A stretch of 64,000 nt of DNA from NCBI GenBank assembly GCA_019973575.1, contig BPUI01000001.1:496001-560000 (forward strand). Direction: 5' to 3'. The DNA is from Gemmatimonadetes bacterium T265 (lineage in GTDB: Bacteria > Gemmatimonadota > Gemmatimonadetes > Gemmatimonadales > Gemmatimonadaceae). Below are positions 24,328 to 61,009 of the stretch, one piece after another; the first letter of the stretch is position 1; every line of letters begins with the position of its first letter. The notes beneath the pieces were generated by a model that had not been told where the DNA came from, did no database searches, and saw only the letters and a program-made list of their open reading frames with translations. Position numbers and translations under genes: made by a program.

Positions 24328-27177
24328 TCAGCGCCTTGCGCGCCGCGCCTGCTCGCACGCCGCAACCCCCGCGCGCAGCTGGACGAGGCCCGCGTCGCCG
24401 GGCGGCGCGCCCGGGTGCCGCGCCGTATACGCGGCCAGCGCCCGCCGGGCGAGGGGTCCGGCACGCCGGCAGTCGCCGTCGGCCCGCAGCAGCGACGCCA
24501 GGGCGGCGAGGAGCTGCGCGTCCCGCCCGGGCGGCTCGGGCGCGGGGGCAGTCGCGCCCCGCGCCGGCGCGGCCGACGCCGGCTCGTACCGCGCCTTCCG
24601 GACGCTCGCCACGGCGTCGAGGGCGGCGGTCTCGCGCCCGCGCTGCGCCTCGACGACGGCGAGCGTCTCGAGTGCCCGGCGCACTAGCGGGTGGTCGGGG
24701 CCGAGGGCGGCCGTAAACGAGGCCACGGCGTGCCGCAGCGCGTCCGCGGCCCCAGCGGCGTCGCGCCGGAGCTGCAGGATGGTGCCGAGGGTCAGGTAGC
24801 TGCCGCCCGCGTCCCGGCTGAACTCCCCGTTCAGCCGCCGCCGGGTGTCGAGCACGCGGCGCTGGACCCGCTCGGCTTCCGCGTACTCCCGCTTCGCCAG
24901 CAGCACCCACGACAGCTCGGACTCCGTGTAGAGCACGTCCGGGTGGCCGGCCGGGAGGCGGCGGCGCTGGATCGCGAGCGCCCACCGCACCGCGCGCTCC
25001 GCCTCGCGCACCCGGCCGACCTCGTTCAACACCGTCCCGAGGCGCTGGTACGCCACGGCCACCGCGGGATGCTCGGGGCCCAGCCACCGCTCGCGGATCG
25101 CGATCGTCTCCCGAGCGAGGGCCTCGTCCGCGGCGTAGTCGCCGACGTCGTACCGGACCAGGCCGAACTGCTCGAGGGCGTCGGCGAGCGCGGGCCCGGG
25201 GGTGCGCCGCCGGCTCGCGATTACCTGGCGGAGCAGGCGCCCGGCCTCGGCGAACCGCGCCTGGATGCGGTACACGGTGGCGAGTTCGTATCGCGTTGCA
25301 TCCAGATCGGCGTCGTGGTCGCCCGGGAGCGCGGCGCGAATCGCCAGCGCCCGGCCGAGCAGCGTGTCCGCCCCGCGCAGGTCGCTCCGGAGGCGGCGGC
25401 TGACACCGAGGTCGTGCAGGACGCCCGCGAGTTCGGCGTCGGGGCCGGCCCGCGCGCCCACGAGCTGCCGCCGCGTCGCGAGGGCGCGCCGGAGCAGCGT
25501 GTCGGCCTGGTCGTAGCGGCCGAGGCTCAGCGCGACGGCTCCTAACGTGTGGAGCAGTTCGGCGCGCACCGCGGGCTGCCGCGCCAGCTCCCGCTCCAGC
25601 CGCTCGGCGCCGAGCCCCAGGCGCTCGTCCGATCCGACGCCCGCCGCCGCGGGCCCGGCCGCGCCGGTCCGGTACGGGTCGGCGTCGCGGATAAGCGCGG
25701 TCACGAAGCGCGTGACCTGCCGCGCCTTGGCCGCCTCGGCCGTGGCCCGCGCGAGCGCCTGCCGCGTGCGCGCCTGCTGGACGCTGGTCACGGTCGCGGT
25801 GCCCGCCAACAGTGCGAACAGGCCCGTCGCCGCGGCGACGCCCCAGCCGTTGCGGCGGACGAAGGCGCGCGCCCGGTACGCCGGGCTGTCCGGCCGCGCG
25901 CGGACGGGGAACCCCGTGCGGTGGCGCCGCAGGTCGTCGAGCAACTCGGCGGCCGAGGCGTAGCGCCGCTCGGGGTCGGGGTCGAGCGCCTTGAGGACGA
26001 TGGTATCGAGGTCGCCGGCGAGCTGACGACGCAGCCGGTCGGGCGTGGTGCCACGGGCGGCGGCGACCGCAGCGGCGGAGTGACCCGCGCGGGCGCGCGC
26101 GGCCGCCGCGGACGGGCGCGTCGGGTGCCAGTCGGCGTCGGGCCCCGCGGCGGCGCCGAGGGATCTTCCGTAACCGGCGCCGCCGCGGGGCACACGGGAG
26201 GGCAGTTCATGCGGCCGCCGCCCCGCGAGCAGCTCGTAGAGCACGACGCCTAACGCATAGACGTCGGTGGCCGTGGTCACCGGCTCGCCGCGCGCCTGTT
26301 CGGGGGCGGCGTACTCGGGCGTCAGCAGGCGCACACCGGCCTCGGTCAGCCCCACTCCCGTGCCGCCCGTCGCCGCGCCGGCGCCCTCCGCGTCGTCTGC
26401 GAGCAGCTTGGCGATGCCGAAGTCGAGGAGCTTGACGTCCCCGTCGGCCGTGACGAGCAGGTTCGAGGGCTTGAGGTCGCGGTGCACCACGAGGTTGCGG
26501 TGCGCGTAGGCCACCGCCTCGCACGCCTGCTCGACGAGCGCGAGCCGCGCCGCCACGCCGAGCCGGCGCGCGTCGCAGTACCGGTCGAGCGGCCAGCCGT
26601 CGACGTACTCCATCGCGAACCAGGGCGTGCCGGCGTCCACGCCCCCGTCGTCGACCACGCCGGCGTCGAGCAGCCGCGCGACGTGCGGGTGGTCGAGCCG
26701 GGCGAGCACGCGCCGCTCGACGAGGAAACGACCGACGCGCTCGGGCGCGGCCAGGCCGCCGCGCACCAGCTTGAGCGCGACCCGCCGGCCGACGTCCTCG
26801 CGCTCGGCCAGGTACACCGTGCCCATCCCGCCGCGCCCCAGCTCGCGCACCAGCCGGTACGGGCCCACGCGCCGGCCGGCCACCGCCGGGACGTCGGCCG
26901 CCACGTCCGGCGCGGGCGCGAACGCGGCGAGCGGCGGCCCCAGCCGAACCGAAGCGTCCGCGTCGGCGACGAGCAGGTCTTCGACCATCGCGCGCAGCGC
27001 GGCGTCACCCGCGCACGCGGCGTCGAGCACCGCCGCGCGCGCGGTCGGCGCGCGCTCGACCGCCGCGTCGAACGCCGCGCGCGCCCGCCGCCACCGCTCG
27101 GGCGTGAGCGCGCCCGGCGGCGCGTTCGGGGGTACGCCCGGCGGCGCGTCGGCGGCCGGCGGGGTGGCGTTAGGCAT
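24328..27177 (-). CDS. Serine/threonine protein kinase with TM helix and TPR sensor region
   Basis: This 949-residue protein starts at ATG 27177, whose first 8 bases overlap the stop of the sigma gene. The kinase domain is residues about 106-420: GRGGMGTVY (114-122), Lys136, HRDLKPSN (232-239), DFG (252-254), and APEQARGEP. A transmembrane segment lies at about 444-463 (GWGVAAATGLFALLAGTATV). Beyond it are TPR repeats with the A..LLRRAL, HPDVLYTESELSWVLL and GPDHPLVRRALETLAVVEAQRG pattern, probably extracytoplasmic. Kinases of this build are typically paired with TIGR02999-type ECF sigmas; the kinase may phosphorylate the sigma factor in response to an envelope signal. Confidence 0.92.
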   Translation of the reverse strand: MPNATPPAADAPPGVPPNAPPGALTPERWRRARAAFDAAVERAPTARAAVLDAACAGDAALRAMVEDLLVADADASVRLGPPLAAFAPAPDVAADVPAVAGRRVGPYRLVRELGRGGMGTVYLAEREDVGRRVALKLVRGGLAAPERVGRFLVERRVLARLDHPHVARLLDAGVVDDGGVDAGTPWFAMEYVDGWPLDRYCDARRLGVAARLALVEQACEAVAYAHRNLVVHRDLKPSNLLVTADGDVKLLDFGIAKLLADDAEGAGAATGGTGVGLTEAGVRLLTPEYAAPEQARGEPVTTATDVYALGVVLYELLAGRRPHELPSRVPRGGAGYGRSLGAAAGPDADWHPTRPSAAAARARAGHSAAAVAAARGTTPDRLRRQLAGDLDTIVLKALDPDPERRYASAAELLDDLRRHRTGFPVRARPDSPAYRARAFVRRNGWGVAAATGLFALLAGTATVTSVQQARTRQALARATAEAAKARQVTRFVTALIRDADPYRTGAAGPAAAGVGSDERLGLGAERLERELARQPAVRAELLHTLGAVALSLGRYDQADTLLRRALATRRQLVGARAGPDAELAGVLHDLGVSRRLRSDLRGADTLLGRALAIRAALPGDHDADLDATRYELATVYRIQARFAEAGRLLRQVIASRRRTPGPALADALEQFGLVRYDVGDYAADEALARETIAIRERWLGPEHPAVAVAYQRLGTVLNEVGRVREAERAVRWALAIQRRRLPAGHPDVLYTESELSWVLLAKREYAEAERVQRRVLDTRRRLNGEFSRDAGGSYLTLGTILQLRRDAAGAADALRHAVASFTAALGPDHPLVRRALETLAVVEAQRGRETAALDAVASVRKARYEPASAAPARGATAPAPEPPGRDAQLLAALASLLRADGDCRRAGPLARRALAAYTARHPGAPPGDAGLVQLRAGVAACEQARRARR

Positions 27178-30467: not shown

Positions 30468-31577
30468 TCAGCCTCGCGACGCCGCGCCGTGATCGCTCGG
30501 CACGGCGCCTCCCCGCAGCTCCGCGACGTGCCGCAGGGCCGCGCGCGCGGCGAGGTCCCAGCTCCAGTACCGCACCGCGTCGCGCCGCGCCTGCGCGCCG
30601 ACGCGGCGCGCCTCCTCGCGGTGCTCGACCACGTGCCGCAGCAGCCGGCGCAGGTGCCCCTCGTCGGGGATCGCCCACAGCCCGTATTCGTACCGCGGGT
30701 CGACGAACTCCCCCCGGTCGTCCGCGCGCTCCATCGCGTCCACCGGAATCAGGTACGCGTTCGACGCGTTCGCGAAGTCCCGGACCGCGCTGTAGTCAGT
30801 GACGATGCACGGCAGCCCGCACGCCATCGCTTCGAGGATCGGGAGGCCCCACCCCTCCCCCCGCGTGGCGAGGACGAACGCGTCGGCGCCCTGGAGCAGC
30901 GCGACGTACGCCGCGCGCGACACAGGATCGCTCGGCACCACCCGCGCGCGACCGCGCGCGCTCGCCGCGACGATCCGCCGGATCGCCTCGCGGAAATGCA
31001 CGCGGCGCGTCCAGTTGCTCCCGCAGTGCATCACCAGCTCGACGGGCTCCCGCGGGTCGAACTCGGCGGCGAACGCGCGCACGAGCGCCGCGGTCCCCTT
31101 CCGCTCCTGCCACTCCCCGACGCAGAGGAAGCGGAACACCGGGTCCGCGCGCGGCCGCGCGGGCGGGACGAACTCCGTCGTGTCCACGCCCGCCGGCACG
31201 ATCCGGATGCGCTCCGCGGGGATCGTGTTCCACGCGAGCACGTCGCGGCCCCAGTGCGACATCGTCCAGACCATGTCCGCGGCGTGCAGAAGCAGGCGGA
31301 CGGGACGCGCGATCCGGGTCGTCTCCGCAACCCCGAACGCCACGCGGAATCGTGTCCCCAACTCCGCCGTCCGCTCCACGGCGCCGAGCGTGATCCCCAC
31401 GGAGTCGCGCGAGCGACGCACGCGCCAGCGCCGGACCGCGGCGGCCACGCCGCGGCGCGTCGGCTCGTGCACGCCCAGCAACTCCGTGCGCTCGTAGCGG
31501 TCGAGCGCGCGCGCGAGCCCGGTCGCGTGGCGCTTCCACCCGCCGTCCCCGTCGAGGTGGGAGACGAACTGGATCAC
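30468..31577 (-). CDS. GT4-family glycosyltransferase (last gene of the GT operon)
   Basis: This 369-residue protein starts at GTG 31577, overlapping the stop of the FkbM methyltransferase (GTGA). Motifs of GT-B retaining enzymes: RIVPAGVDTTEFVP, FRFLCVGEWQERKGTAALVRAF, VVPSDPVSRAAYVALLQGADAFVLATRGEGWGLPILEAMACGLPCIVTDYSA. The EGWGLPILEAMA element holds the donor-binding E-x7-E. The N-terminus (VIQFVSHLDGDGGWKRHATGLARAL) is the acceptor side. It presumably transfers a sugar onto the product of the operon, but donor and acceptor are unknown. Confidence 0.9.
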   Translation of the reverse strand: MIQFVSHLDGDGGWKRHATGLARALDRYERTELLGVHEPTRRGVAAAVRRWRVRRSRDSVGITLGAVERTAELGTRFRVAFGVAETTRIARPVRLLLHAADMVWTMSHWGRDVLAWNTIPAERIRIVPAGVDTTEFVPPARPRADPVFRFLCVGEWQERKGTAALVRAFAAEFDPREPVELVMHCGSNWTRRVHFREAIRRIVAASARGRARVVPSDPVSRAAYVALLQGADAFVLATRGEGWGLPILEAMACGLPCIVTDYSAVRDFANASNAYLIPVDAMERADDRGEFVDPRYEYGLWAIPDEGHLRRLLRHVVEHREEARRVGAQARRDAVRYWSWDLAARAALRHVAELRGGAVPSDHGAASRG

Positions 31578-32557
31578 GACGGCGATCCCGCCGCCGGCGT
31601 CGCGCCCGCCGGTGCCACGCGCGCGGGAGGCCGGCGCGCGTCGAGCAGGTGGAGGCCCGGCGACGCGGCCTGCGTCCGCACCTCGAAGCCGTCCTCCCGC
31701 AGCCGCGTCGCGAGGTGCTCCACCCGGTACGCGCTGTACCCGGCGACGCGGCTCTCGGGCGCGAGGAGCGCCATCTCCGCCTCGTACACCTCGTGCACCT
31801 CCGCGACCAGGCGATGCACCCGCCCCAGCTCGCGCGACGTCAGCAGGATGGGAAACTCGCTGCCTTCGCAGTCCAGCTTCAGGAGCCGCACGCGGGCGAA
31901 CGTGCGAAGGATCGCGTCCAGCGCGACGCCACGCACGCCCTGCGCGGGAGCCGCGGGACCCGCGTCGCCGCGGTGGGCGAAGATCGGCGGGTTTCGACCG
32001 GTGACTACGGAGCACGCGCCCGTGTTGTCGCCGCTCGGGCCCGAGAGCACCAGGGGCGCGTCGGCCGCCGCGCCGTCGCTGCGCCACACGGCCAGTTGAC
32101 GGAGATGGGTGCCGGGGAGCGAGGCCAGGTTGCGCCGGAGCCCGTCGAAGTTGACCGGCGACGGCTCGTAGCTGTGGATGGCGCGACTTCCGAGCGTGTG
32201 GCACAGGTACGAGAACGTGCCGACGTGCGCACCCACGTCCACCACGACGTCGTCCGGCGCCAGCGGGTCGTCGCCCACGCCGTATTCGTCCCCGTACGCC
32301 ACGGCAGACACGATGTTCTCCTTCTCGAACGCGTTGTTCACCTCGAAGCGCCGGAAGACGCGCGCCCGGTGGAAGTACGCCGGCTCGCCCGGGAGGCGTG
32401 AGGCGGAGCCGAGCTCCAGCGCGTCGAGCCGCGCGCGAATGGTCCGCCCCTGCGCGGCGAGCCGGTACGCCACGCCGACAAAGCCGGCGAGTACGGCCGG
32501 CAACGAGAGCACGACGAGCCACGGGAACACGTGGGCAGAGGCCGCGCCGGTCGTCAT
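31574..32557 (-). CDS. FkbM-family methyltransferase with N-terminal membrane anchor
   Basis: This 327-residue protein has an N-terminal hydrophobic helix (about residues 10-30, FPWLVVLSLPAVLAGFVGVAY), then an FkbM domain: DDVVVDVGAHVGTFSYLCHTLG (SAM motif I), IHSYEPSPVNFDGLRRNL and RLLKLDCEGSEFPIL. FkbM enzymes O-methylate sugars or natural products. Embedded among glycosyltransferases, it probably caps or modifies a glycan, perhaps at the membrane face. It starts 7 bp after the preceding GT gene. Confidence 0.88.
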   Translation of the reverse strand: MTTGAASAHVFPWLVVLSLPAVLAGFVGVAYRLAAQGRTIRARLDALELGSASRLPGEPAYFHRARVFRRFEVNNAFEKENIVSAVAYGDEYGVGDDPLAPDDVVVDVGAHVGTFSYLCHTLGSRAIHSYEPSPVNFDGLRRNLASLPGTHLRQLAVWRSDGAAADAPLVLSGPSGDNTGACSVVTGRNPPIFAHRGDAGPAAPAQGVRGVALDAILRTFARVRLLKLDCEGSEFPILLTSRELGRVHRLVAEVHEVYEAEMALLAPESRVAGYSAYRVEHLATRLREDGFEVRTQAASPGLHLLDARRPPARVAPAGATPAAGSPS

Positions 32558-32564
32558 GCGTACG

Positions 32565-33872
32565 TCATCCGGCGGCGCGCGCCGGCGCGCCCTGGCGGCC
32601 AGTCGGCGCGCGCGGCCAGCGCGGCGACGGCACGGTATCGAGCGCAGCAGCCACGGCGTCGACGGAGTAGCGCCGCCGCACCAGCTCCAGGGCCGCGGCG
32701 GTCAGCCGTCGCCCGAGTGCCGCGTCCCGCATGAGCCACGCGCAGCGGGCCGCCAGTGCCGAGGATGTGTCCGCGACGAGCGCGTGTTCGCCGTCGCGCG
32801 CGTCGATGCCGGCGATCCCGGGCGAGGTGGCCACCACCGGGCGACCATGGGCGAATGCCTCGAGCACCTTGATGCGCGTCCCGCCGCCGGCCCGCAGCGG
32901 CACGATCGCGGCGCCCGCCTCGCGGTAGAGCGCGGCCACGTCCGGCACCCGCCCCGCGAAGGTGACCCGCGGCGGCCGCGCGAGGCGCGACAGCGAAGGC
33001 GGCGCACCGCCCCCGGCGACCACGACGCGGAAGTCGCGCGCGGCCAGCCGTTCGATCAGGGGGACGATCTCGTCGCACAGCCAGGCGACGGCGTCCGCGT
33101 TCGGCCAGTAGCCGAGCGTGCCCACGAAGAGGAACTGGAAGGGCTCGCGCGGCGGTGCGGGCGCGACGTCGCGCACTCCCGCCACGGTGTTGGGCAGCAC
33201 GCACAGCTGGGCATGCGCGCGGGGGGCGAGCCGCTCGCGGTCCGCGTCGCTGCAGACGTAGACGCGGTCGAAGGTCGCGAGCACCTCGTCCTCCTGCGCC
33301 CGCGCGCGCCGCGCGGCACGGTCCGCCGCCTCCGCCGCGGCGCCGCGGCCGCCGGCGCGGTGCAATTCCGCCATCTCGCCCAGCACGTCGGACTCGACGT
33401 CGTCCAGGTCCAGGTGCAGTTCCGGGCCGTGCGCGGCGAGCGCCGCGGCATACCGACACCCGAGTGCGACCATCGAGAGCCGAAACACGTGCACCGCGTC
33501 GAAACGCTCGGCGGCGTACGGCAGCGGGTCCGACCGGGGCTCGGGGGAGGCGCCTGCGCCCGCCCGCGCCGGGTGCAGGCGGGCGAGGAGTCGACCCAGT
33601 CGCCCGACCCACGCCGGGAGCACGCCCGCGTGCGGCGGGGGGAGGACCGCGACGCGTTCGCAGAGCGCGGCCAACTCGGGCGCGAGCTTCCCGTATAGAG
33701 GCGGCCCGTACAGCGGCGGGTAGAGCGGCGCGACGACGAGCGTCACCGCGTACCGGCGGGCGAGCACCTCGAGCACCGCGCCCGCGCGCATCGCGAGCCC
33801 GTTCCCACCGGTCGCCGGGAGCACCGGACTGACGTACAGCAGCCTGCGGCGCGGCGCGTCGTCGCGGGTCAC
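32565..33872 (-). CDS. GT4-like glycosyltransferase
   Basis: This 435-residue GT-B fold protein starts at GTG 33872, overlapping the stop of the GT2 gene (GTGA). N-terminal side: LLYVSPVLPATGGNGLAMRAGAVLEVLARR, an acceptor domain typical of polysaccharide GTs. C-terminal side: CVLPNTVAGVRDV, FQFLFVGTLGYWPNADAVAWLCDEIVPL, RVTFAGRVPDVAALYREAGAAIVPLRAGGGTRIKVLEAFAHGRPVVATSPGI. A central charged helical stretch (about 185-250, EEDEV/RAARRARAQEDE) is of the kind seen in related GTs. Donor and acceptor are unknown. Confidence 0.88.
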   Translation of the reverse strand: MTRDDAPRRRLLYVSPVLPATGGNGLAMRAGAVLEVLARRYAVTLVVAPLYPPLYGPPLYGKLAPELAALCERVAVLPPPHAGVLPAWVGRLGRLLARLHPARAGAGASPEPRSDPLPYAAERFDAVHVFRLSMVALGCRYAAALAAHGPELHLDLDDVESDVLGEMAELHRAGGRGAAAEAADRAARRARAQEDEVLATFDRVYVCSDADRERLAPRAHAQLCVLPNTVAGVRDVAPAPPREPFQFLFVGTLGYWPNADAVAWLCDEIVPLIERLAARDFRVVVAGGGAPPSLSRLARPPRVTFAGRVPDVAALYREAGAAIVPLRAGGGTRIKVLEAFAHGRPVVATSPGIAGIDARDGEHALVADTSSALAARCAWLMRDAALGRRLTAAALELVRRRYSVDAVAAALDTVPSPRWPRAPTGRQGAPARAAG

Positions 33873-34636
33873 GATCGCTCCGCCCCCGCGGTTTCCCCGT
33901 GCAGTCGGCGGTAGAAAGTCAGCGCCCAGCCGGGAAGGAACGCCTCCGGCGCGCGCGCGTGCAGCCCGAGGCGCGTCATGTGCGATTCGAGCGTCTCCCC
34001 GTCGGGGTTGTGCGTCCACGTGTGCCCGCGCTCGCGCGGGTGCGCCGAGTGTCGGACGGCGACGAACTGCTCGAGCGCGTCGACCGGGAGGAGCTCGACG
34101 CCGCGCCGCCGTTGGTCCATGAGGAACCAGATGTCCTCGTGCGAGCGGACCCGGCGGAACGGGGTCGCGTCCCAGTCGTCGCGCGCGAAGAGCAGCGTCG
34201 CGCCGGGGACGTTGCGGTCCCGCGAGACGCGCAGCTCCCAGCGCGCGATCTCGAAGAGGAGGAACGGCGTGACGAACGCGACCTTGGGGCGACAGACGAC
34301 CGTGCGCGCGTGCAGCAGCGCCGCGACCATGGTGGCGAGGAAGCGCGGACCGTACCAGTCGTCGTCGTCCACCTTCTGACAGAACGTGCCCCGCGCCTCG
34401 CGCACCGCCGCGTTCAGTTTCTCCCCGAGCGGTGTGTCCGGATCGACCCGCACGAGCCGGCCTCCGGCGGCCCGCACCTGGTCGCCGTGCGCCGGGAATT
34501 GCTCGCCGTCGTCTACCACGATCAGTTCCCGTTCGGCGTATCGCTGCTCCGCGTAGCAGCGCAGGGCGACGGCAAGCAGGCGAGGCCGGTCGCGCGTCGC
34601 GAGGATTACCGAGACGCGCGGTCGGTCCGTCGTCAT
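33869..34636 (-). CDS. GT2-family glycosyltransferase
   Basis: The 255-residue GT-A protein starts at ATG 34636, 11 bp after the stop of the Cys-rich peptide gene; an in-frame ATG further upstream would run into that gene. Motifs: VSVILATRDRPRLLAVALRCYAEQ, ERELIVVDDGEQF, LGEKLNAAVREARGTFCQKVDDDDWYG (metal-binding DDD), and a long C-terminal part with RSHEDIWFLMDQRRRG. The enzyme has no obvious membrane segment. Because it directly follows the peptide gene, it is the first candidate for modifying that peptide, though polysaccharide synthesis is equally possible. Confidence 0.88.
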   Translation of the reverse strand: MTTDRPRVSVILATRDRPRLLAVALRCYAEQRYAERELIVVDDGEQFPAHGDQVRAAGGRLVRVDPDTPLGEKLNAAVREARGTFCQKVDDDDWYGPRFLATMVAALLHARTVVCRPKVAFVTPFLLFEIARWELRVSRDRNVPGATLLFARDDWDATPFRRVRSHEDIWFLMDQRRRGVELLPVDALEQFVAVRHSAHPRERGHTWTHNPDGETLESHMTRLGLHARAPEAFLPGWALTFYRRLHGETAGAERS

Positions 34637-34647
34637 GCGTGCCTGAT

Positions 34648-34908
34648 TCAGCCGATCGAGTAGCAGTTGCCGTTGAAGCCCATCGTGCACCGCACGTTGC
34701 ACATCGCTCGGGCCATCCCGGTCAGGCCGCTGCAGCATTGCTGGATACACGCCGCGACGTCAGGATTGTGCTGCTGCGCACGCGCACTCCGCGGCAGCAG
34801 CGTGGCCGCGCCGAACCCGAACATGCCACTCAGGAGCGCGCGGAGCGCACTCCTGCGCGACGTTCCCGCCGCTAACGCCTTCGCGAGGTCGTCCATCTGG
34901 TCGCTCAT
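34648..34908 (-). CDS. Small Tat-exported Cys-rich peptide with twin CX3C motif
   Basis: The product has 86 residues. After an acidic, amphipathic N-terminus (MSDQMDDLAKALAAGT) comes a twin-arginine signal (SRRSALR, Arg18-Arg19), a hydrophobic core and a likely cleavage site after SARA (residue 44). The predicted mature part is about 42 residues with six Cys: 54, 58, 59, 70, 74 and 82, i.e. CX3CC-X10-CX3C-X7-C. Paired CX3C motifs usually mark a helical hairpin held by two nested disulfides. No known family was recognised. The gene lies within a GT/FkbM/thioredoxin operon, 91 bp after the thioredoxin gene and 11 bp before the GT2 gene. Confidence 0.8.
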   Translation of the reverse strand: MSDQMDDLAKALAAGTSRRSALRALLSGMFGFGAATLLPRSARAQQHNPDVAACIQQCCSGLTGMARAMCNVRCTMGFNGNCYSIG

Positions 34909-34999
34909 CGGTCTCCACTCCAGCCCCCTCCGCGCGTGAAGGTGTGGGCCGCGCCGGGGAGGGGAGGGTGGCGGCGGCGGCCCAAGTACCGAGGCTGGT

Positions 35000-36160
35000 T
35001 CAGGCCGGGACGGCGCCTGCCGGCGTCGCCGCTCCCCTGACCAGGTCGAGGATGGCCGTGAGACCGAGTGCGGGGGGCGAGGCGATCGTCCCGGCCTCGT
35101 CGATGAGGTAGGCGACCGGCGTCGCGAACATCGCATAGTTGCGCGACACCTCCCAGTGGCGCTGCAACAGGATGGGGAATGTGATCCCCTCCGTGTGCGC
35201 CAGGTTCGCGTCGCGCCCGCCGCGGCTGATTGCGACCACCCGGAACGGGACAGTCCCGGCGCGATGGACCCGCTCCAGCTCCGGCATGGCCCGCTGGCAG
35301 GGGCCGCAGTGCGGGTCGGTGAAGACGAGCAGCAGGCCGCGCCCGAGGAACTCGGACAGGGAGTGTTCCCCGCCCTGCACCGCCGGCAGCCGGAAGTCCG
35401 GCGCGGGCTCGCCCGGGTGCAGCCCGGTGCGGCGGATATGCGTTCCCGTGGGCACCGGCGGGAGGTGCAGGGGGCTGTAGTCCGTCCCGGTCCCTTCAGG
35501 CGCCGTCGCCACGCCGGCCGGGTCCGCCTCGGCATGTTGCAGGAGCGCCAGCACTGCTGCGACGCCGAGCGCCCGTTCGCCCACGGTTCGCCCCTCCGCG
35601 TCGATGCGATAGGCAGCGGGCGTCCCGTCGGCACGCAGCACCCGCGCGAGCTCGCGCTCCTCCTGCACGAGCACCGGGAACGTGAGCCCGTGCTCCGCGG
35701 CGAACGCCCGGTTGCGCTCCGGATCGCCGGTCCCGATCAGCAGCACCACGGCGCCGCCGGCGTCCGGGCGCAGGCGCCCCATGCGCGCGAACAGTTCGCG
35801 GCTGGCGTCACACGCCGGGTCGAAGAACACCAGCAGCACCTCCCGCCCGCGCCACTCCCAGAGGGTGAGACTCCCGCCATCGGGCGTCGCGAGCTCGAAG
35901 TCCGGGACCACGGCTCCGGACGGCCAGCCCGCGATCGGACCGTGCGGTGCAGAGGACGCCGCTGCGCCGTCGCCGGACGCGCCACGCTCACTCGCCGCGG
36001 CCTCCTCGAGCGCGTCGCGCACCGCGCGCGTTTCCTCCTCCAGCCGTTCGATGCGCCGGAGGATCCGCCCGTTCTGGAGCAGCGTCTGGTACGCGAGCCA
36101 ACCCGAAACCGCGGCGACGAGGAGCACCAGCGCCGCGCCGATTGTGAGGACGAGAGTCAT
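35000..36160 (-). CDS. Membrane-anchored double thioredoxin-like (TlpA/MauD-type) protein
   Basis: This 386-residue protein starts at ATG 36160, overlapping the GT32 stop (ATGA). Residues 3-24 form a membrane anchor; 30-56 are a likely coiled coil (RRIERLEEETRAVRDALEE). Domain 1 (about 83-210) is a peroxiredoxin/TlpA fold with a single Cys (FFDPACDAS, Cys117, Ser120). Domain 2 (about 248-380) has an intact CGPC (Cys285, Cys288) and the cis-Pro loop TPVAYLID (Pro348). Domain 2 can do thiol-disulfide exchange outside the membrane; domain 1 resembles MauD-like or one-Cys forms. The adjacent Cys-rich peptide is an obvious candidate substrate. Confidence 0.88.
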   Translation of the reverse strand: MTLVLTIGAALVLLVAAVSGWLAYQTLLQNGRILRRIERLEEETRAVRDALEEAAASERGASGDGAAASSAPHGPIAGWPSGAVVPDFELATPDGGSLTLWEWRGREVLLVFFDPACDASRELFARMGRLRPDAGGAVVLLIGTGDPERNRAFAAEHGLTFPVLVQEERELARVLRADGTPAAYRIDAEGRTVGERALGVAAVLALLQHAEADPAGVATAPEGTGTDYSPLHLPPVPTGTHIRRTGLHPGEPAPDFRLPAVQGGEHSLSEFLGRGLLLVFTDPHCGPCQRAMPELERVHRAGTVPFRVVAISRGGRDANLAHTEGITFPILLQRHWEVSRNYAMFATPVAYLIDEAGTIASPPALGLTAILDLVRGAATPAGAVPA

Positions 36161-37092
36161 CGTTCCGCGAGGAGAGGGAGCGCGCCGATTCGCGGCAGCC
36201 CGTCGCGTGCGGGGCGATGGCGCAGGTCGCGCACGCGCCAGCGGATGCGGTCGCGCAGCGCGAGCGGCGCCGGGAGGTAGCGTCGGGCCACGATGTTGTA
36301 CGTGGTATCCACCCGCGCCAGATAGCGCTCGGTGAGCCGCCCGGCGTGGAAGGACGAGAAGTCGCGGCGGTGCCGCGACCACCAGAGGTGGCTCCACAGG
36401 TGCATGCTCACCACGCCCTCCGTGTCGTCGTCGAGTTCCTGCAGCAGCGTGCGGATCCCCGCGCGCGTCCACTCGTGCTTGTAGAACGTGCGCGGCGGCT
36501 CCACGTGGATCAGCTCCGGATGCTCCTCGCTCAGGCGTTGCGGCAGCAGCGTGGAGTGATTGCTCCACGAGCCGTCGAACGCGCGCGGCATCGCCTCCAG
36601 CCACCGCCGCCCGAACTCCGCGTTCGGCTCGGCCATGATCACGGCGTTGCACAGCGAGCGCTGCGGCCGGTCGACGCCCGCCGGCGCCACGTCGCGCTCG
36701 CGGCCGAGCACGAAGCGCTGCTCGCGCAGGTGCGCCGGGAACGGGCGCACGAAGATCGTGTCGATATCGGCGTAAATCCCGCCGTGCGCGAGCAGCCGCT
36801 CCAGGCGCACGAAGTCGGCGTGGTGCGCGTACCGGAACGCCGCCACGGCGGGGTCACGATAGCGGAACCCTTCCACCACGCCGCCGAGCGGGACGCGCAC
36901 CGGGGTGACGCGCCGCTTCGCCAGTTCCCAATACCGCCCGTACGGCTCGTGGTGGTAGTAGACCAGGATCTCGTCGGGCCGGTTCACCCGCCAGCACGAC
37001 TCGAGGCAAAGGTAGAATGCCAGGTGGAACGGCTCCGTCTGCCGCCTGAGCCCGAAGACGAAGTGGAAGACGTTGGGGATCCGTGTCGTCAT
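36157..37092 (-). CDS. GT32-type glycosyltransferase (DXD motif), first gene of the operon
   Basis: This 311-residue protein starts at ATG 37092 (MTTRIPNVFHFVFG). GT32 signatures are PNVFHFVFG, the DXD block ADFVRLERLLAHGGIYADIDTIFVRPF (Asp109, Asp111), NAVIMAEPNAEFGRRWLEAM, and the C-terminal MHLWSHLWW. GT32 enzymes transfer mannose, galactose or other hexoses from nucleotide sugars. The stop overlaps the TlpA-like start. No clear promoter was identified in the gene-free kilobase upstream. Confidence 0.85.
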   Translation of the reverse strand: MTTRIPNVFHFVFGLRRQTEPFHLAFYLCLESCWRVNRPDEILVYYHHEPYGRYWELAKRRVTPVRVPLGGVVEGFRYRDPAVAAFRYAHHADFVRLERLLAHGGIYADIDTIFVRPFPAHLREQRFVLGRERDVAPAGVDRPQRSLCNAVIMAEPNAEFGRRWLEAMPRAFDGSWSNHSTLLPQRLSEEHPELIHVEPPRTFYKHEWTRAGIRTLLQELDDDTEGVVSMHLWSHLWWSRHRRDFSSFHAGRLTERYLARVDTTYNIVARRYLPAPLALRDRIRWRVRDLRHRPARDGLPRIGALPLLAER

Positions 37093-55991: not shown

Positions 55992-56717
55992 ATGTCCGGG
56001 TTCCGGTACCTCGCATTCCGCCCGTCGCTCGCCCGCGCGGCCCTCCTCGCCGCCGGCGTCGCCGCGTCCGGCGCCGCCGCGGCCCCCGCCCGCGCCCAAT
56101 CCCCCGTCACCGTCAACTTCAACACCCTCGTCGACACGGCCGGCGCGGGCATCCGGTACGTCGACAACTGTTACACGGAATCCGGCTTCACCTTCACCGC
56201 GGTCGGCGTCGCCTGTGGGACCCAGGCGTCGTTCGCGACCGGCGGGCCGACGAGCCCCCCGCTCTGGACCGGCAGCCCGTCGCTCTTCCTGAACGACCCG
56301 GTCGCCACCCAGGTCGACTTCACGCGCGCGGACGGCGGGACGTTCTCGATCAACTCCATCGCGCTCGCGCCGTACTTCGGCAGCGGCGCGACGGTCAGCT
56401 TCGTCGGCGTCCTCCAGGGCGGCATCTCCGTGGACCAGGCGTTCACGGTCGCGGCCGGGAGCCAGTTCGCGAACAACCCGACGCAGGTGTTCACCTTCGA
56501 CGGCGCGTTCACCAACCTGACCTCGGTCCGCATGACCGCGGTCGACATGTACAACGAGCCGATCGTGATGTTCGACGACGTCATGTTCACCACCGCCGCG
56601 ACCACCGTCCCCGAGCCGACGACGGTCGTCCTGCTCGCGGGCGGGCTGTTCGGCGTCGGCATGCTCGCGCGCACCCGCGGCGCCCGCCGGCGCGCCGCGT
56701 CGACGCTCAACGCCTGA
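55992..56717 (+). CDS. PEP-CTERM sorted exported protein, copy A
   Basis: From ATG 55992 (TAGGAGA upstream) the protein has 241 residues. A signal peptide ends near APARAQSP. The body is a beta-rich domain with paired Cys (VDNCYTESGFTFTAVGVACGT). The C-terminus carries a PEP-CTERM signal: VPEPTTVVLLAGGLFGVGMLARTRGARRR, i.e. Pro-Glu-Pro, a hydrophobic helix and a basic tail. Such proteins are processed by an exosortase (EpsH/XrtA-type) and placed on the surface; no exosortase is in the window. First gene of a three-gene block that is duplicated downstream. Confidence 0.87.
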   Translation: MSGFRYLAFRPSLARAALLAAGVAASGAAAAPARAQSPVTVNFNTLVDTAGAGIRYVDNCYTESGFTFTAVGVACGTQASFATGGPTSPPLWTGSPSLFLNDPVATQVDFTRADGGTFSINSIALAPYFGSGATVSFVGVLQGGISVDQAFTVAAGSQFANNPTQVFTFDGAFTNLTSVRMTAVDMYNEPIVMFDDVMFTTAATTVPEPTTVVLLAGGLFGVGMLARTRGARRRAASTLNA

Positions 56718-56735
56718 CCCCGACCGAGTCGACCC

Positions 56736-57455
56736 ATGGAACAGACCCGTCAGCAGCTCCCGCCCGAGCGCGCGTCCTCGACGTCCGACCGGCGCGACTT
56801 CCTCCGCGCCGCCGGCCTCGGCAGCGCCGCCCTCGTGCTCGCGGCCTGCGGCGCCGAGCGCGCCACCGCGCCCGGCGTCTTCAACACCGCCGCCGCCGCG
56901 GCGAGCGGCGCCGCGAGTTCGGCCCCGGCCGTCACCCTCGACTTCTCGTCCGACATCGGCGTCCTGAATTACGCATACGCGCTCGAACAGCTCGAGGCCG
57001 CGTTCTACGCGCGCGTGCTCTCGGCGCCGTACGCCGGCATCACGACGCAGGAAATGCGCGTCCTGTCCGACCTCCGCGACCACGAGGCCATCCACCGCGC
57101 CTTCCTCAAGAAGGCCCTCGGGACGGCCGCGATCGTGGACCTCACGGCCAACTTCACGAGCATCGACTTCACGACCCGCATGGGCGTGCTCGGCGCCGCG
57201 CAGGCGTTCGAGGACCTCGGCGTGCACGCGTACAACGGCGCGGGCCACTACATCAAGAGCGCCAGCTACCTCACGATCGCCGGCAAGATCGTCTCGGTCG
57301 AGGCGCGCCACGCGTCCGCCATCCGCGACCTCCTCTCGCCCAAGAGTGGGTCGTTCGCCCCGGACGTGTTCGACGCGGGCTTCCCGCCGTCGCAGGTCCT
57401 GGCCTCCGCCGGCAAGTACGTGGTCAACACGATTAACGTCGTCAACGCCTCCTGA
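56736..57455 (+). CDS. Tat-exported ferritin-like (Ferritin_2) lipoprotein, copy A1
   Basis: This 239-residue protein has a Tat motif (DRRDFLRAAG, Arg19-Arg20) and a lipobox-like Cys38. The four-helix ferritin-like domain, about 70-205, keeps the diiron ligands: Glu84, Glu117-x-x-His120, Glu159, Glu189-x-x-His192. It belongs with Ferritin_2 (PF13668), a family that includes desiccation-related proteins of the PCC13-62 type. It starts 18 bp after the PEP-CTERM gene and presumably acts outside the cytoplasm. A role in iron or peroxide handling, or drying stress, is inferred. Confidence 0.87.
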   Translation: MEQTRQQLPPERASSTSDRRDFLRAAGLGSAALVLAACGAERATAPGVFNTAAAAASGAASSAPAVTLDFSSDIGVLNYAYALEQLEAAFYARVLSAPYAGITTQEMRVLSDLRDHEAIHRAFLKKALGTAAIVDLTANFTSIDFTTRMGVLGAAQAFEDLGVHAYNGAGHYIKSASYLTIAGKIVSVEARHASAIRDLLSPKSGSFAPDVFDAGFPPSQVLASAGKYVVNTINVVNAS

Positions 57456-57469
57456 GGGTGACTTCTCCC

Positions 57470-58327
57470 ATGTCCGAACACTTTCTCGACCAGGGTCGCC
57501 CCATCTCGCTGCTCGCGACGCTCGACGCGGCGGAGCCCGAGATCGCCGCGCGCCTCGCCACGCGTCACGCCGCCATCGCGCAGGGCGCCAGCACCTCGAA
57601 CGCCGTCGCCGCCGGGCTCGCGCTCGCCGCCGCGCCGATCGCCCTCGCCGCCCTCGCACGCGACGCCTACGGCCAGAGCGCCCGCCTGCCGGCCGCCGTG
57701 GTGACGATCCTCAACTTCGCCCTCACGCTCGAGCACCTCGAGAGCGACTTCTACACGATGGGCGTCAACGCGACGGGACTCATCCCGGCCGCGGACCGCG
57801 CGATCTTCACGACGATCCAGCAGCACGAGGCGCAGCACGTCACGACGCTGCAGGGGCTGCTCGGCTCGTCCGCCCGGCCCAAGCCGACGTTCGATTTCTC
57901 GGCCAAGGGCACGTTCACCGACACGTTCACCAACTACAACACCTTTAAGGCCCTCGCGCAGGCGTTCGAGGACACCGGCGTGCGCGCGTACAAGGGCCAG
58001 GCCCCGGCGCTGATCCCCTACGGGACGGTCCTCACCGCCGCGCTCTCGATCCACTCGGTCGAAGCGCGCCACGCCTCCGAGGTCCGCCGCCTGCGCGGCA
58101 GCTTCTCGGAGCAGGCGCCCAACAAGGGGTGGATCACCGGCAACCAGACCGACCTCCCGGCCGCGGCGAACGCGACCTACGCCGGCGAGGAGAACCTCAT
58201 CCAGGGCGGCGTGGACGTCAGCACGCTCGTCCCGGGCCTCGGCGCGGGTCCGGCGAGCGAGGCCTTTGACGAGCCGCTGACGATGGCGCAGGTGATCGCC
58301 ATCGCGGGGAACTTCATCGCGGGCTGA
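57470..58327 (+). CDS. Exported ferritin-like (Ferritin_2) protein, copy A2
   Basis: From ATG 57470 (GAGGG upstream, 14 bp after the previous stop) the protein has 285 residues. The N-terminus (about 1-68) contains an Ala-rich hydrophobic stretch ending ALARDAYGQ, a signal-like segment without a clear Arg pair. Diiron ligands are Glu88, Glu120-x-x-His123, Glu167, Glu198-x-x-His201. A C-terminal extension, about 215-285, has NKGWITGNQTDLPAAANATYAGEENLIQGGVDV and EAFDEPLTMAQVIAIAGNFIAG. Probably a partner of copy A1, as they are paired in both blocks. Confidence 0.87.
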   Translation: MSEHFLDQGRPISLLATLDAAEPEIAARLATRHAAIAQGASTSNAVAAGLALAAAPIALAALARDAYGQSARLPAAVVTILNFALTLEHLESDFYTMGVNATGLIPAADRAIFTTIQQHEAQHVTTLQGLLGSSARPKPTFDFSAKGTFTDTFTNYNTFKALAQAFEDTGVRAYKGQAPALIPYGTVLTAALSIHSVEARHASEVRRLRGSFSEQAPNKGWITGNQTDLPAAANATYAGEENLIQGGVDVSTLVPGLGAGPASEAFDEPLTMAQVIAIAGNFIAG

Positions 58328-58353
58328 CCGGTCCACGTTCCGCACCGGACGGC

Positions 58354-58391
58354 CGACGGGGCCGGCGCTCGATCGAGCGCCGGCCCCGTCG
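58354..58391 (+). terminator. Perfect 38-bp palindromic terminator, block A
   Basis: The 38 bases at 58354-58391 equal their own reverse complement and are followed by CCTTTTCG. It lies 26 bp after the ferritin A2 stop. A near-identical stretch, including the flanking ACCGGTCC and CCGGACGGC, is found after block B at about 61009-61069, so the terminator was duplicated with the genes. Confidence 0.85.
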
Positions 58392-58609
58392 CCTTTTCGC
58401 GGCACCTGTCCAGCGAATCCGCGCGTGGCGCACGCGGCGGGCACTGCGCGCCGTGTGGCGGCGTTGAGGCGCTGCGTCCGAGGTGCAGCAGACGTCGGCA
58501 CTCCCCAGCACGCACCGGCCGCGCGCTCCACCGCGCCGGGACCCCGGCCGTGCACCCCGCGCGGTCCGGCGCCTGATCCCGTCGCACCACCCCAGGCAGG
58601 AGAACGTCG

Positions 58610-59323
58610 ATGTTCGGGTCCAAACTCCTCGCGTTCCGCCCCCCACTCGCCGCCTTCGCCCTGCTCGGCGCCCTCGCCGGCGCGTCGGCCGTCACAGCGG
58701 CCCCGGCCCGCGCACAGGCGGTGACGGTCAACTTCAACTCCCTCACCCCCGACGGCCTCTCGGACTTCGGGTACGTCAACAACTGTTATCAGGAGTCCGG
58801 CTTCCAGGTGACCGCCGTCGGCCTCGCCTGCGGGACGCCGGACGCGTTCGCGACGGCCTTCGCCAGTGCCGGACCCGCGTACACGGGGACCCCCGCCCTC
58901 TTCCTGAACGACCCGACCGCGACGCTCGTCGACTTCAGCCGCGTCGGGGGCGGCACCTTTTCGATGCAGTCCGTCTCGTTCGCGCCGTTCGGCGGCCCCG
59001 ACCCGCTCGGCAGCCCGACGACGGTCACGCTCGTCGGCTCGCTCACGAACGGGTCGACGGTCTCGCAGATGTTCAGCGTGTCGACCCTGATCGACGGCCT
59101 GCAGACCTTCTCCCTCGGCTCCGGGTTCACCGGCCTGACCTCGGTCCGCATGACCGCGCTCGACGAGTTCAACGAGCCGATCGTGCAGTTCGACGACCTC
59201 GTCTTCACGCCGGGCGGCGCGTCGACCGTCCCGGAGCCGACGACCGTCGCCCTGCTCGCCGGCGGCCTGCTCGGCGTGGGCGCGGTCGCCGGGCGCCGGC
59301 GCGCAGCGCGTCCGCAGGCCTGA
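58610..59323 (+). CDS. PEP-CTERM sorted exported protein, copy B
   Basis: This 237-residue paralogue of the protein at 55992 starts at ATG 58610. Both share a start (LAFRP), a signal ending APARAQ, the VTVNFN and NCY-ESGF...TAVG.ACGT block, SLFLNDP/ALFLNDP and a GLTSVRMTA stretch. The PEP-CTERM signal is VPEPTTVALLAGGLLGVGAVAGRRR. It is first gene of block B. Divergence from copy A is substantial in the middle, so duplication is not recent. Confidence 0.87.
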   Translation: MFGSKLLAFRPPLAAFALLGALAGASAVTAAPARAQAVTVNFNSLTPDGLSDFGYVNNCYQESGFQVTAVGLACGTPDAFATAFASAGPAYTGTPALFLNDPTATLVDFSRVGGGTFSMQSVSFAPFGGPDPLGSPTTVTLVGSLTNGSTVSQMFSVSTLIDGLQTFSLGSGFTGLTSVRMTALDEFNEPIVQFDDLVFTPGGASTVPEPTTVALLAGGLLGVGAVAGRRRAARPQA

Positions 59324-59429
59324 GCGGCCGCGCCCGCAGCCGCGGCCCGCGGGCGCACGTCACACGCACGACCTCCGCACACCACACGCGCACCACATCC
59401 GTCATCACGTGCCTAACGAGGGTGGGATC

Positions 59430-60164
59430 ATGAACGAAACCATCGACCCGACCGGTCGAACGGAGCACACGAGCGCCGGCGGGCACGACCGCCGGAACTT
59501 CTTCCGCCTCGCCGGCCTCGGCGGGGCCGCCGTCGCGCTCGCCGCGTGCGGCGTCGACCCCACGCGGGCGACCGCGGTCGCCGGCAGCGCCGCCGCGTCC
59601 ACGGCCGCGGCGACCGGCGGCGGGTCGGTCACCTACGACTTCGGCCTGACGAACGACGGCGGCATCCTCAACTTCGCCTACGCCATGGAGCAGCTCGGCG
59701 AGGCGTTCTACGCGAACGCGACCTCGAACGCGCAGTTCGCCACCATCTTCTCCGCGGGCGAGCAGCGCATCCTGCGCGACTTCCTCGGCCACGAGACCGC
59801 GCACCGCGACCTGTTCAAGGCCGCCCTCGGCGCCGCCGGCATCGTCGTGACGCCGAACTTCAGCAGCGTCAACTTCGCCGACCGCACGAGCGTGCTCACG
59901 ACGGCGCGCACGTTCGAGAACACCTGCGTCGCCGCCCTCAACGGCGCGGGCCCGCTCCTCCACGTCGCGGCCAACCTCGCCCTCGCCGGCAAGCTCGTCT
60001 CGGTCGAGGCGCGCCAGGCCTCGGCCCTCAACGACCTGCTCTCGCCCAAGAGCGGCGCCTTCGCGCCGAGCGACTTCGACATGGGGGACACGCCGCAGCA
60101 GGTCGTGGCCATCGTCCAGCCGTTCGTCGTCGAGAAGATCAACGTCATCAACGTCACCACCTGA
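59430..60164 (+). CDS. Tat-exported ferritin-like lipoprotein, copy B1, with altered iron ligand
   Basis: From ATG 59430 (GAGGGTGGGA upstream) the protein has 244 residues. It is a paralogue of the protein at 56736. Tat signal: DRRNFFRLAG (Arg21-Arg22), lipobox-like Cys40. Diiron ligands: Glu87, Glu122-x-x-His125, Glu163, Glu193, but the last histidine is Gln196 (SVEARQAS; codon CAG at 60015-60017) where the three other ferritin copies have His. A GTG at 59409 within GCCTAAC could add seven residues. Metal binding may be weakened or altered. Confidence 0.85.
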   Translation: MNETIDPTGRTEHTSAGGHDRRNFFRLAGLGGAAVALAACGVDPTRATAVAGSAAASTAAATGGGSVTYDFGLTNDGGILNFAYAMEQLGEAFYANATSNAQFATIFSAGEQRILRDFLGHETAHRDLFKAALGAAGIVVTPNFSSVNFADRTSVLTTARTFENTCVAALNGAGPLLHVAANLALAGKLVSVEARQASALNDLLSPKSGAFAPSDFDMGDTPQQVVAIVQPFVVEKINVINVTT

Positions 60165-60175
60165 GCGAGGACGCC

Positions 60176-61009
60176 ATGACCGACCACATCGAAACCCTGG
60201 GCCGCCCGAAGTCGCTGCTCGAGCACCTCGAGTCGGCCGACCCCGAGATAGCCGAGCGCCTCGTCAGCCGTCGCGCCGCCGTCGCGGCCGGCGTCGGGCT
60301 GGCCTCCGCGCCCGTCATGCTCGCCGCGCTCGCGCGCGACGCGTTCGGCCAGGCCGCGCGCCTGCCGGCCGTCGTCATCTCGGTCCTCAACTTCGCGCTC
60401 ACGCTCGAGTACCTCGAGCGCGACTTCTACGTAACCGCCGTGGGCACGAGCGGCCTCATCCCGGCGAGCGACCAGCCCATCTTCAACCGGATCCGCGACC
60501 ACGAAGTCTCCCACGTGTCGGCGATCCTCGGGCTGCTCGGCACCTCCGCCCGGCCGAAGCCGACCTTCGACTTCACGGCCCACGGCGCGTTCCCGACCGT
60601 GTTCTCCGACTACGCGACGTTTCTCGCCGTGTCGCAGGCGTTCGAAGACACCGGCGTGCGCGCGTACAAGGGTCAGGCGCCGGCGCTCTTCCCGTACAAG
60701 TCGGCGCTCTCGTACGCGCTCCAGATCCACTCGGTCGAGGCGCGCCACGCGTCCGAAGTCCGCCGCCTCCGCGGCCAGCGCAAGGGCGACCCCGAGCAGG
60801 CGCCCAACAAGGGCTGGATCACCGAAGCCCAGACCGACATCCCCGGCACCCAGGCCACCTACGCCGGCGAGGACAACACGGTGGAGGGCGGCGTCGACCT
60901 CACCACGATCTCGACGGCCAGCCGCGACAACATCACCGAGGCGTTCGACGAGCCGCTGACGATGGCGCAGGTGCTGGCCATCGCCGGGAACTTCATCGCC
61001 GTGCCCTGA
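60176..61009 (+). CDS. Exported ferritin-like protein, copy B2
   Basis: From ATG 60176 the protein has 277 residues. It is a close paralogue of copy A2, including SARPKPTFDF, FEDTGVRAYKGQAPAL and the C-terminal NKGWIT...EAFDEPLTMAQV.AIAGNFIA. A Tat-like signal is visible (SRRAAVAAGVGLASAPVMLAALARDAFGQ, Arg32-Arg33). Diiron ligands are Glu78, Glu110-x-x-His113, Glu157 and Glu188-x-x-His191. It lies 11 bp after the copy B1 stop, the same spacing style as in block A. Confidence 0.87.
   Translation: MTDHIETLGRPKSLLEHLESADPEIAERLVSRRAAVAAGVGLASAPVMLAALARDAFGQAARLPAVVISVLNFALTLEYLERDFYVTAVGTSGLIPASDQPIFNRIRDHEVSHVSAILGLLGTSARPKPTFDFTAHGAFPTVFSDYATFLAVSQAFEDTGVRAYKGQAPALFPYKSALSYALQIHSVEARHASEVRRLRGQRKGDPEQAPNKGWITEAQTDIPGTQATYAGEDNTVEGGVDLTTISTASRDNITEAFDEPLTMAQVLAIAGNFIAVP

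What the first reader, a model, noticed from the sequence alone, without database searches (positions are those of the whole stretch)
30468..37092. Seven-gene operon: exported Cys-rich peptide with four glycosyltransferases, an FkbM methyltransferase and a double thioredoxin
Seen: seven minus-strand genes with overlaps (ATGA once, GTGA twice) or short gaps (7, 11 and 91 bp), in the order GT32, TlpA-like, Cys-rich peptide, GT2, GT4-like, FkbM methyltransferase, GT4. Known: glycocin-type peptides combine a disulfide-held helical hairpin, a glycosyltransferase and thiol-disulfide enzymes, though they use different leaders and ABC exporters. Inference: this may be a Tat-exported, disulfide-bonded, glycosylated or methylated peptide system. 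A surface polysaccharide locus that happens to hold a small protein is the main alternative.
Basis: partly seen in the sequence, partly recalled or inferred. Interest (0 to 1): 0.72.

Follow-up and report, generated by a model that had tools for sequence, protein, structure and literature searches.

The report
Conserved Tat peptide–thioredoxin–glycosyltransferase gene cluster
A bacterium carries an operon in which a small secreted protein sits between a two-domain thioredoxin and a sugar-adding enzyme, and the same trio recurs in distant Chloroflexota, which suggests an undescribed way of making sugar-decorated, disulfide-held secreted mini-proteins.

Summary
The seven-gene operon is exactly as described, and it is more than a chance grouping. 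The closest relatives of its GT2 (47-54% identity) turned up in five Chloroflexota genomes, and all five lie in a cluster with a double-thioredoxin (TlpA) gene. In four of the five, as in the window, one or two Tat-exported peptide genes lie between TlpA and GT2. One locus (L116) is just TlpA–peptide–GT2. A GT4 (40-43%) recurs in three loci and an FkbM in two; GT32 does not recur. All six GT2-linked TlpAs have CxxS in domain 1, while the seven readable unlinked ones have CxxC (one branch of the tree, so perhaps one event). TlpA plus Tat Cys-rich protein also occurs widely without glycosyltransferases and resembles MauD–MauA.

Best reading: the cytosolic GT2 starts a glycan on the Tat peptide, other GTs extend it, FkbM caps it, TlpA manages its thiols, and Tat exports it. 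The conserved triad is shown; glycosylation of the peptide is inferred. Against it: one Chloroflexota cluster lacks a nearby peptide, and another has a peptide without cysteine. It is not a glycocin (Tat leader, no C39/PCAT exporter).

The parts
34648..34908 (-). Tat-exported Cys-rich peptide, 86 aa; leader MSDQMDDLAKALAAGTSRRSALRALLSG..SARA, mature about 42 aa with C-x3-C ... C-x3-C ... CYS
   Evidence: leader n-region alike in all linked peptides; low-confidence two-helix hairpin in AF2
35000..36160 (-). double thioredoxin/TlpA with MauD-like N-terminal anchor; domain 1 CDAS (CxxS), domain 2 CGPC
   Evidence: 38-42% identity to double TlpAs of other phyla
33869..34636 (-). GT2 glycosyltransferase, GT-A fold, no TM helix; member of the TlpA-linked subfamily
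   Evidence: 47-54% to five Chloroflexota loci, all in a cluster with a double TlpA
32565..33872 (-). GT4a (Glyco_trans_1_4, nearest NCBIfam TIGR03087 below cut-off)
   Evidence: 40-43% to L092, L108, L115
31574..32557 (-). FkbM-family methyltransferase with a TlpA/MauD-like N-terminal membrane anchor
   Evidence: FkbM also in L090 and L108 clusters
30468..31577 (-). GT4b glycosyltransferase
   Evidence: 27-28% to GT4 of L092 and L108
36157..37092 (-). GT32-like (Gly_transf_sug, DXD) glycosyltransferase; first gene of operon, variable part
   Evidence: relatives only in peptide-free clusters (L036 38%, L084 42%)

Best explanation
This is a biosynthetic operon for a glycosylated, disulfide-held mini-protein exported by Tat. 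In the cytosol the dedicated GT2 adds the first sugar to the peptide precursor. GT4a, GT4b and GT32 extend the glycan, and FkbM O-methylates a sugar as a cap. The membrane-anchored double TlpA (a CxxS holding domain plus a CxxC domain) controls the peptide's cysteines, and Tat exports the folded glycopeptide. Shown: the operon, the homologies, and conservation of the TlpA-Tat peptide-GT2 triad across two phyla. Inferred: that the peptide is the acceptor, the order of sugars, the role of FkbM, the side of the membrane on which TlpA acts, and Tat export of a folded form.
For: All five Chloroflexota relatives of GT2 lie in a cluster with a double TlpA; in four of them (L090, L092, L115, L116) the Tat peptide gene(s) lie between TlpA and GT2, as in the window. 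L116 is a bare three-gene set, so the link is not a by-product of a big sugar locus. L115 has two tandem Tat Cys-rich genes in that slot. GT4a recurs at 40-43% in three loci. FkbM recurs in L090 and L108. GT2 was not found in the other genomes searched: 248 other Gemmatimonadota, the rest of 400 Chloroflexota, and 12 other genomes with TlpA loci from the scan. GT2-linked TlpAs have CxxS in domain 1, unlinked ones CxxC. The peptide in L092 has no Cys but repeated FNGT motifs, which suits a glycan acceptor. No lipid-linked export or polymerase gene is in the operon.
Against: L108 has GT2, FkbM, TlpA and GT4s but no peptide nearby. The Cys-free L092 peptide still has TlpA beside it. FkbM and GT32 are not constant. 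No acceptor motif is shared by all linked peptides: N-x-S/T is missing in the window and present in unlinked L088/L089. The GT2 fold says nothing about the acceptor. The CxxS split may be a single event, as the tree puts linked and unlinked on two sides of one branch at 73% support.
Confidence: 0.5

Rival explanations
1. Surface glycan locus. The GTs and FkbM build a cell-surface oligosaccharide on another acceptor, and the TlpA-Tat peptide pair is a separate envelope redox module kept next to it because both act on the envelope.
For: TlpA plus Tat Cys-rich protein occurs widely without GTs. L108 has the GTs without a peptide. GT32 relatives sit in EPS-like GT groups. In the same genome another Tat Cys-rich protein lies in an EPS locus.
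Against: The bare triad in L116 has no other GT. Where the peptide is present it is always between TlpA and GT2. The operon has no initiating transferase, flippase, polymerase or ABC exporter.
Confidence: 0.25
2. The GT2 modifies TlpA or another Tat Cys-rich envelope protein in trans, and the linked peptide is a partner or regulator, not the acceptor.
For: L108 keeps GT2 and TlpA without the peptide, and its genome has two related Tat proteins elsewhere. The L092 peptide lacks cysteine.
Against: The peptide gene is directly upstream of GT2 in five of six loci.
Confidence: 0.13
3. MauD/MauA-like maturation of a redox or metal-binding mini-protein, with the sugars unrelated to the peptide.
For: The leader resembles that of a true MauA in G133 (MARYDDVVERLTRHLAQTVSRRSVLRSLGG). 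The TlpA anchor is MauD-like. TIGR02661 hits domain 2 at 46 bits, far below cut-off.
Against: No MauB, MauE or MauG-like gene in the operon; does not account for the conserved GT2.
Confidence: 0.12

Closest known systems
Glycocins (sublancin, glycocin F, thermoglycocin)
   Same: small Cys-rich precursor, glycosyltransferase and paired thioredoxin-like enzymes in one cluster (PMC12457901)
   Different: Tat leader instead of a C39-cleaved leader, no PCAT exporter, several GTs plus FkbM in place of one GT, thioredoxins fused in one protein with a CxxS domain
Methylamine dehydrogenase small subunit MauA with MauD/MauE
   Same: long n-region Tat leader, Cys-rich substrate directly downstream of a membrane-anchored thioredoxin
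   Different: no MauB/MauE/MauG, no methylamine dehydrogenase, glycosyltransferases added; substrate about 42 aa
Candidate RiPP families with MauE/MauD homologues and Cys-rich precursors (decRiPPter, PMC7794033)
   Same: MauD/MauE-type gene next to a Cys-rich precursor outside the mau cluster
   Different: the passages read mention neither a Tat leader nor a glycosyltransferase for those Streptomyces clusters
Exopolysaccharide / surface glycan GT clusters
   Same: GT2, GT4, GT32, Anp1 and FkbM families
   Different: no priming, flippase, polymerase or ABC export genes in the operon; GT2 tied to TlpA and a Tat peptide

Membership tests
Glycocin | leader removed by a C39 peptidase of a PCAT exporter encoded nearby (PMC12457901) | tested here: not met
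   Tat leader with ARA-QQ site; no ABC/C39 gene among the seven
Glycocin | SunS/ThgS-type peptide S/O-glycosyltransferase | tested here: inconclusive
   GT2 family and GT-A fold met; best solved relatives are mostly polysaccharide GTs; no direct comparison with SunS made
Glycocin | thioredoxin-like thiol-disulfide enzymes in the cluster | tested here: met
   double TlpA 35000-36160
Glycocin | helical hairpin held by nested disulfides | tested here: inconclusive
   AF2 places helices 49-59 and 65-75 carrying the CX3C pairs, but pLDDT is only 56 overall and about 65-70 there
Glycocin | sugar on Ser/Thr/Cys of the core peptide | not testable with these tools
   needs mass spectrometry
mau (methylamine dehydrogenase) system | MauA-type Tat leader on the substrate | tested here: met
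   n-region similarity to G133 MauA, shuffle p 0.0017; stronger to the other peptides
mau (methylamine dehydrogenase) system | MauD above NCBIfam cut-off, with MauE and MauB | tested here: not met
   TIGR02661 46.2 bits versus 188.6; no MauE or MauB in the operon
Surface polysaccharide locus | priming transferase, flippase/polymerase or ABC exporter | tested here: not met
   none among the seven genes; L116 is a bare triad. Flanking window genes were read, not scanned
Broad Tat Cys-rich protein family next to TlpA/MauE | homologous leader and Cys core | tested here: met
   HMM match 2.2e-28 but from a model containing the window peptide; independent tests: leader n-region p<0.001, core p 0.0003 with Cys fixed on hand-trimmed cores; an uncut mature-domain HMM test was not significant. 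The leader is firm, the core moderate

The most novel reading that the evidence does not exclude
A new class of ribosomal glycopeptide: a mini-protein glycosylated in the cytosol by a dedicated GT2, with a CxxS/CxxC double TlpA acting before or during Tat export, so that a finished glycan crosses by Tat without any lipid carrier or flippase.
Probability: 0.35. Interest if true: 0.82.

Novelty: new variant of a known kind. Interest (0 to 1): 0.62.

Why it matters
If true, it would add a Tat-dependent, lipid-carrier-free route for bacterial peptide glycosylation, spread over Gemmatimonadota and Chloroflexota, groups where protein glycosylation is little studied. It would also give a function to some of the many uncharacterised Tat Cys-rich proteins that sit next to TlpA/MauE genes. 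The bare triad in L116 makes the idea testable with three genes.

Tried and rejected
(1) A genome-contig scan with the peptide alone found nothing, and the phylum search gave one convincing partner (L009/L037, MauE-TlpA fusion with a Tat Cys-rich protein); L010 was a chance hit in a pilus region. (2) GT32 as co-occurrence marker: one relative in 99 genomes and one plasmid, both without the peptide. (3) Mature-domain HMM against shuffles was not significant with the full mature regions; only hand-trimmed cores were. (4) A shared N-x-S/T sequon as acceptor mark: not discriminating. (5) PDB fold search of GT2 did not point to a peptide acceptor; GalNAc-T2 appears among many polysaccharide GTs. 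(6) Weak GT2 hits G671 and G655 are in unrelated contexts. (7) Literature searches found no description of the triad; the library lacks most subscription papers.

Full report
OBSERVATION. Pfam and NCBIfam support GT32-like Gly_transf_sug, a protein with two AhpC-TSA/TlpA stretches, GT2, two GT4s and FkbM; the 86-aa peptide has no family. The peptide has a twin-arginine leader with an ARA-QQ site and six cysteines after it. The operon has the GC of its surroundings (0.7375 versus 0.7405).

THE PEPTIDE ALONE IS RARE, THE TlpA IS THE WAY IN. The peptide gave no hit in 85,000 species by short patterns and one convincing match in 395 phylum genomes: G016, where a MauE-TlpA fusion directly precedes a Tat Cys-rich protein. 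The double TlpA gave a 41% match on a Caballeronia plasmid, again directly followed by a Tat protein rich in Cys. An alignment of these two TlpAs found 14 loci in Acidobacteria, Chloroflexi, Burkholderiales, Eremiobacterota, Actinobacteria and others. Most of those with the double TlpA have a Tat-leader protein beside it, usually Cys-rich and usually without GTs (a few contigs are cut short, or hold MauE-TlpA fusions without a visible Tat partner). So TlpA plus Tat substrate is a wide module, akin to MauD plus MauA: a true mau cluster in G133 has a MauA leader of the same build. Similar MauE/MauD-linked Cys-rich precursors were proposed as candidate RiPPs in Streptomyces (PMC7794033).

THE GT2-LINKED SUBSET. 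In L092 (Dehalococcoidia MAG) the order is TlpA, Tat peptide, GT2 (52% to the window GT2), Anp1-like GT, GT4 (40% to GT4a), with a convergent GT4. In L090 (Chloroflexi MAG) it is FkbM, TlpA, Tat Cys-rich peptide, GT2 (48%). A GT2 profile searched over 400 Chloroflexota and three orders added L108, L115 and L116. L115: TlpA, two Tat Cys-rich genes, GT2, GT4a, convergent GT4. L116: TlpA, Tat Cys-rich, GT2 and nothing else. L108: Anp1, GT4a, convergent GT4, a TlpA without membrane anchor, cytidylyltransferase-FkbM, GT2, and no peptide gene nearby. Thus 6 of 6 GT2s lie in a cluster with a double TlpA and 5 of 6 have the peptide in between. The 12 other genomes reached by the TlpA scan lack this GT2, as do the other 248 Gemmatimonadota tested. 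One tblastn table summarises the identities.

ACTIVE SITES. Domain 1 of the TlpA reads CxxS in all six GT2-linked proteins (CDAS, CHFS, CAFS, CGPS, CLYS, CLFS) and CxxC in the seven unlinked ones in which domain 1 could be read; domain 2 keeps CxxC in all. A maximum-likelihood tree puts the unlinked proteins together at 73% support, so this may be one event rather than repeated change. A CxxS site can hold but not resolve a mixed disulfide, which would suit a holding or isomerase-like role (established knowledge of thioredoxin variants; inference here).

PEPTIDE HOMOLOGY. The leader n-region is alike across all linked and most unlinked proteins (shuffle p below 0.001, MauA 0.0017). The Cys core C-x3-C...C...C(Y) aligns at four invariant Cys; its similarity is significant on hand-trimmed cores with Cys positions fixed (summed p 0.0003), but a test on untrimmed mature parts was not. 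AlphaFold2 gives a low-confidence two-helix hairpin. The family occurs in many genomes of G664's order without GT2 (GT2 in 3 of 61).

MECHANISM. GT2 has no membrane helix and a GT-A fold with closest matches among polysaccharide GTs, so it should act in the cytosol. No priming enzyme, flippase, polymerase or ABC exporter is in the operon. The simplest model is a glycan assembled on the precursor in the cytosol, capped by FkbM, and exported by Tat. The TlpA and FkbM share the same kind of N-terminal anchor with no K/R before and several after the helix. FkbM needs SAM, so its domain should be cytosolic; by the same rule TlpA would be too, which runs against the usual extracytoplasmic role of TlpA/MauD. 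This is unresolved.

LIMITS. No experiment shows a sugar on any of these peptides. L108 without a peptide and L092 with a Cys-free peptide show that neither peptide linkage nor cysteine is obligatory. GT32 and FkbM are not part of the conserved core. Five of the six loci are Chloroflexota, several are MAG contigs cut short, and the gene calls outside the window were made with a simple codon-position caller. Taxon names for G664, G886 and G887 are not given; they share an order with the locus titled Thermomicrobiales (G409).

VERDICT. Real, conserved and, in the literature searched, undescribed as a unit. It may work like a glycocin-type pathway but fails the glycocin membership test on leader and exporter. 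New variant of a known kind.

Noticed in passing
L074:8310-12018 (G000:C1 about 1730300-1734000): Second thiol module in the same genome: PqqD-like domain fused to a Tat leader and Cys-rich tail, with a MauE-TlpA fusion, an HPr-kinase-like and a nucleotidyltransferase-like gene, beside EPS genes; similar set in G080 (L075:7801-10444).
   Followed up: partly
window 31574-32557 and 35000-36160: FkbM and TlpA carry the same MauD-like N-terminal anchor with positive charges only after the helix, which predicts both catalytic domains in the cytoplasm.
   Followed up: partly
L092:11128-11448: GT2-linked Tat peptide without any cysteine, made of FNGTxPP-like repeats, still next to a double TlpA.
   Followed up: partly
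L108:8264-9526: FkbM methyltransferase fused to an N-terminal cytidylyltransferase-like domain in a GT cluster.
   Followed up: no
window 55992-61009: Two tandem copies of a three-gene unit: a secreted protein, a protein with a Tat-like RR leader, and a protein starting MSEHF or MTDHI followed by GRP(I/K)SLL.
   Followed up: no
window 26990-27080: ARAGORN tRNA-Arg call lies inside a long kinase-like ORF on the same strand and is probably false.
   Followed up: no
L084:9295-12819: Diaphorobacter plasmid operon GT2, hypothetical, GT4, GT32 whose GT32 is 42% identical to the window GT32, with no peptide or TlpA.
   Followed up: partly
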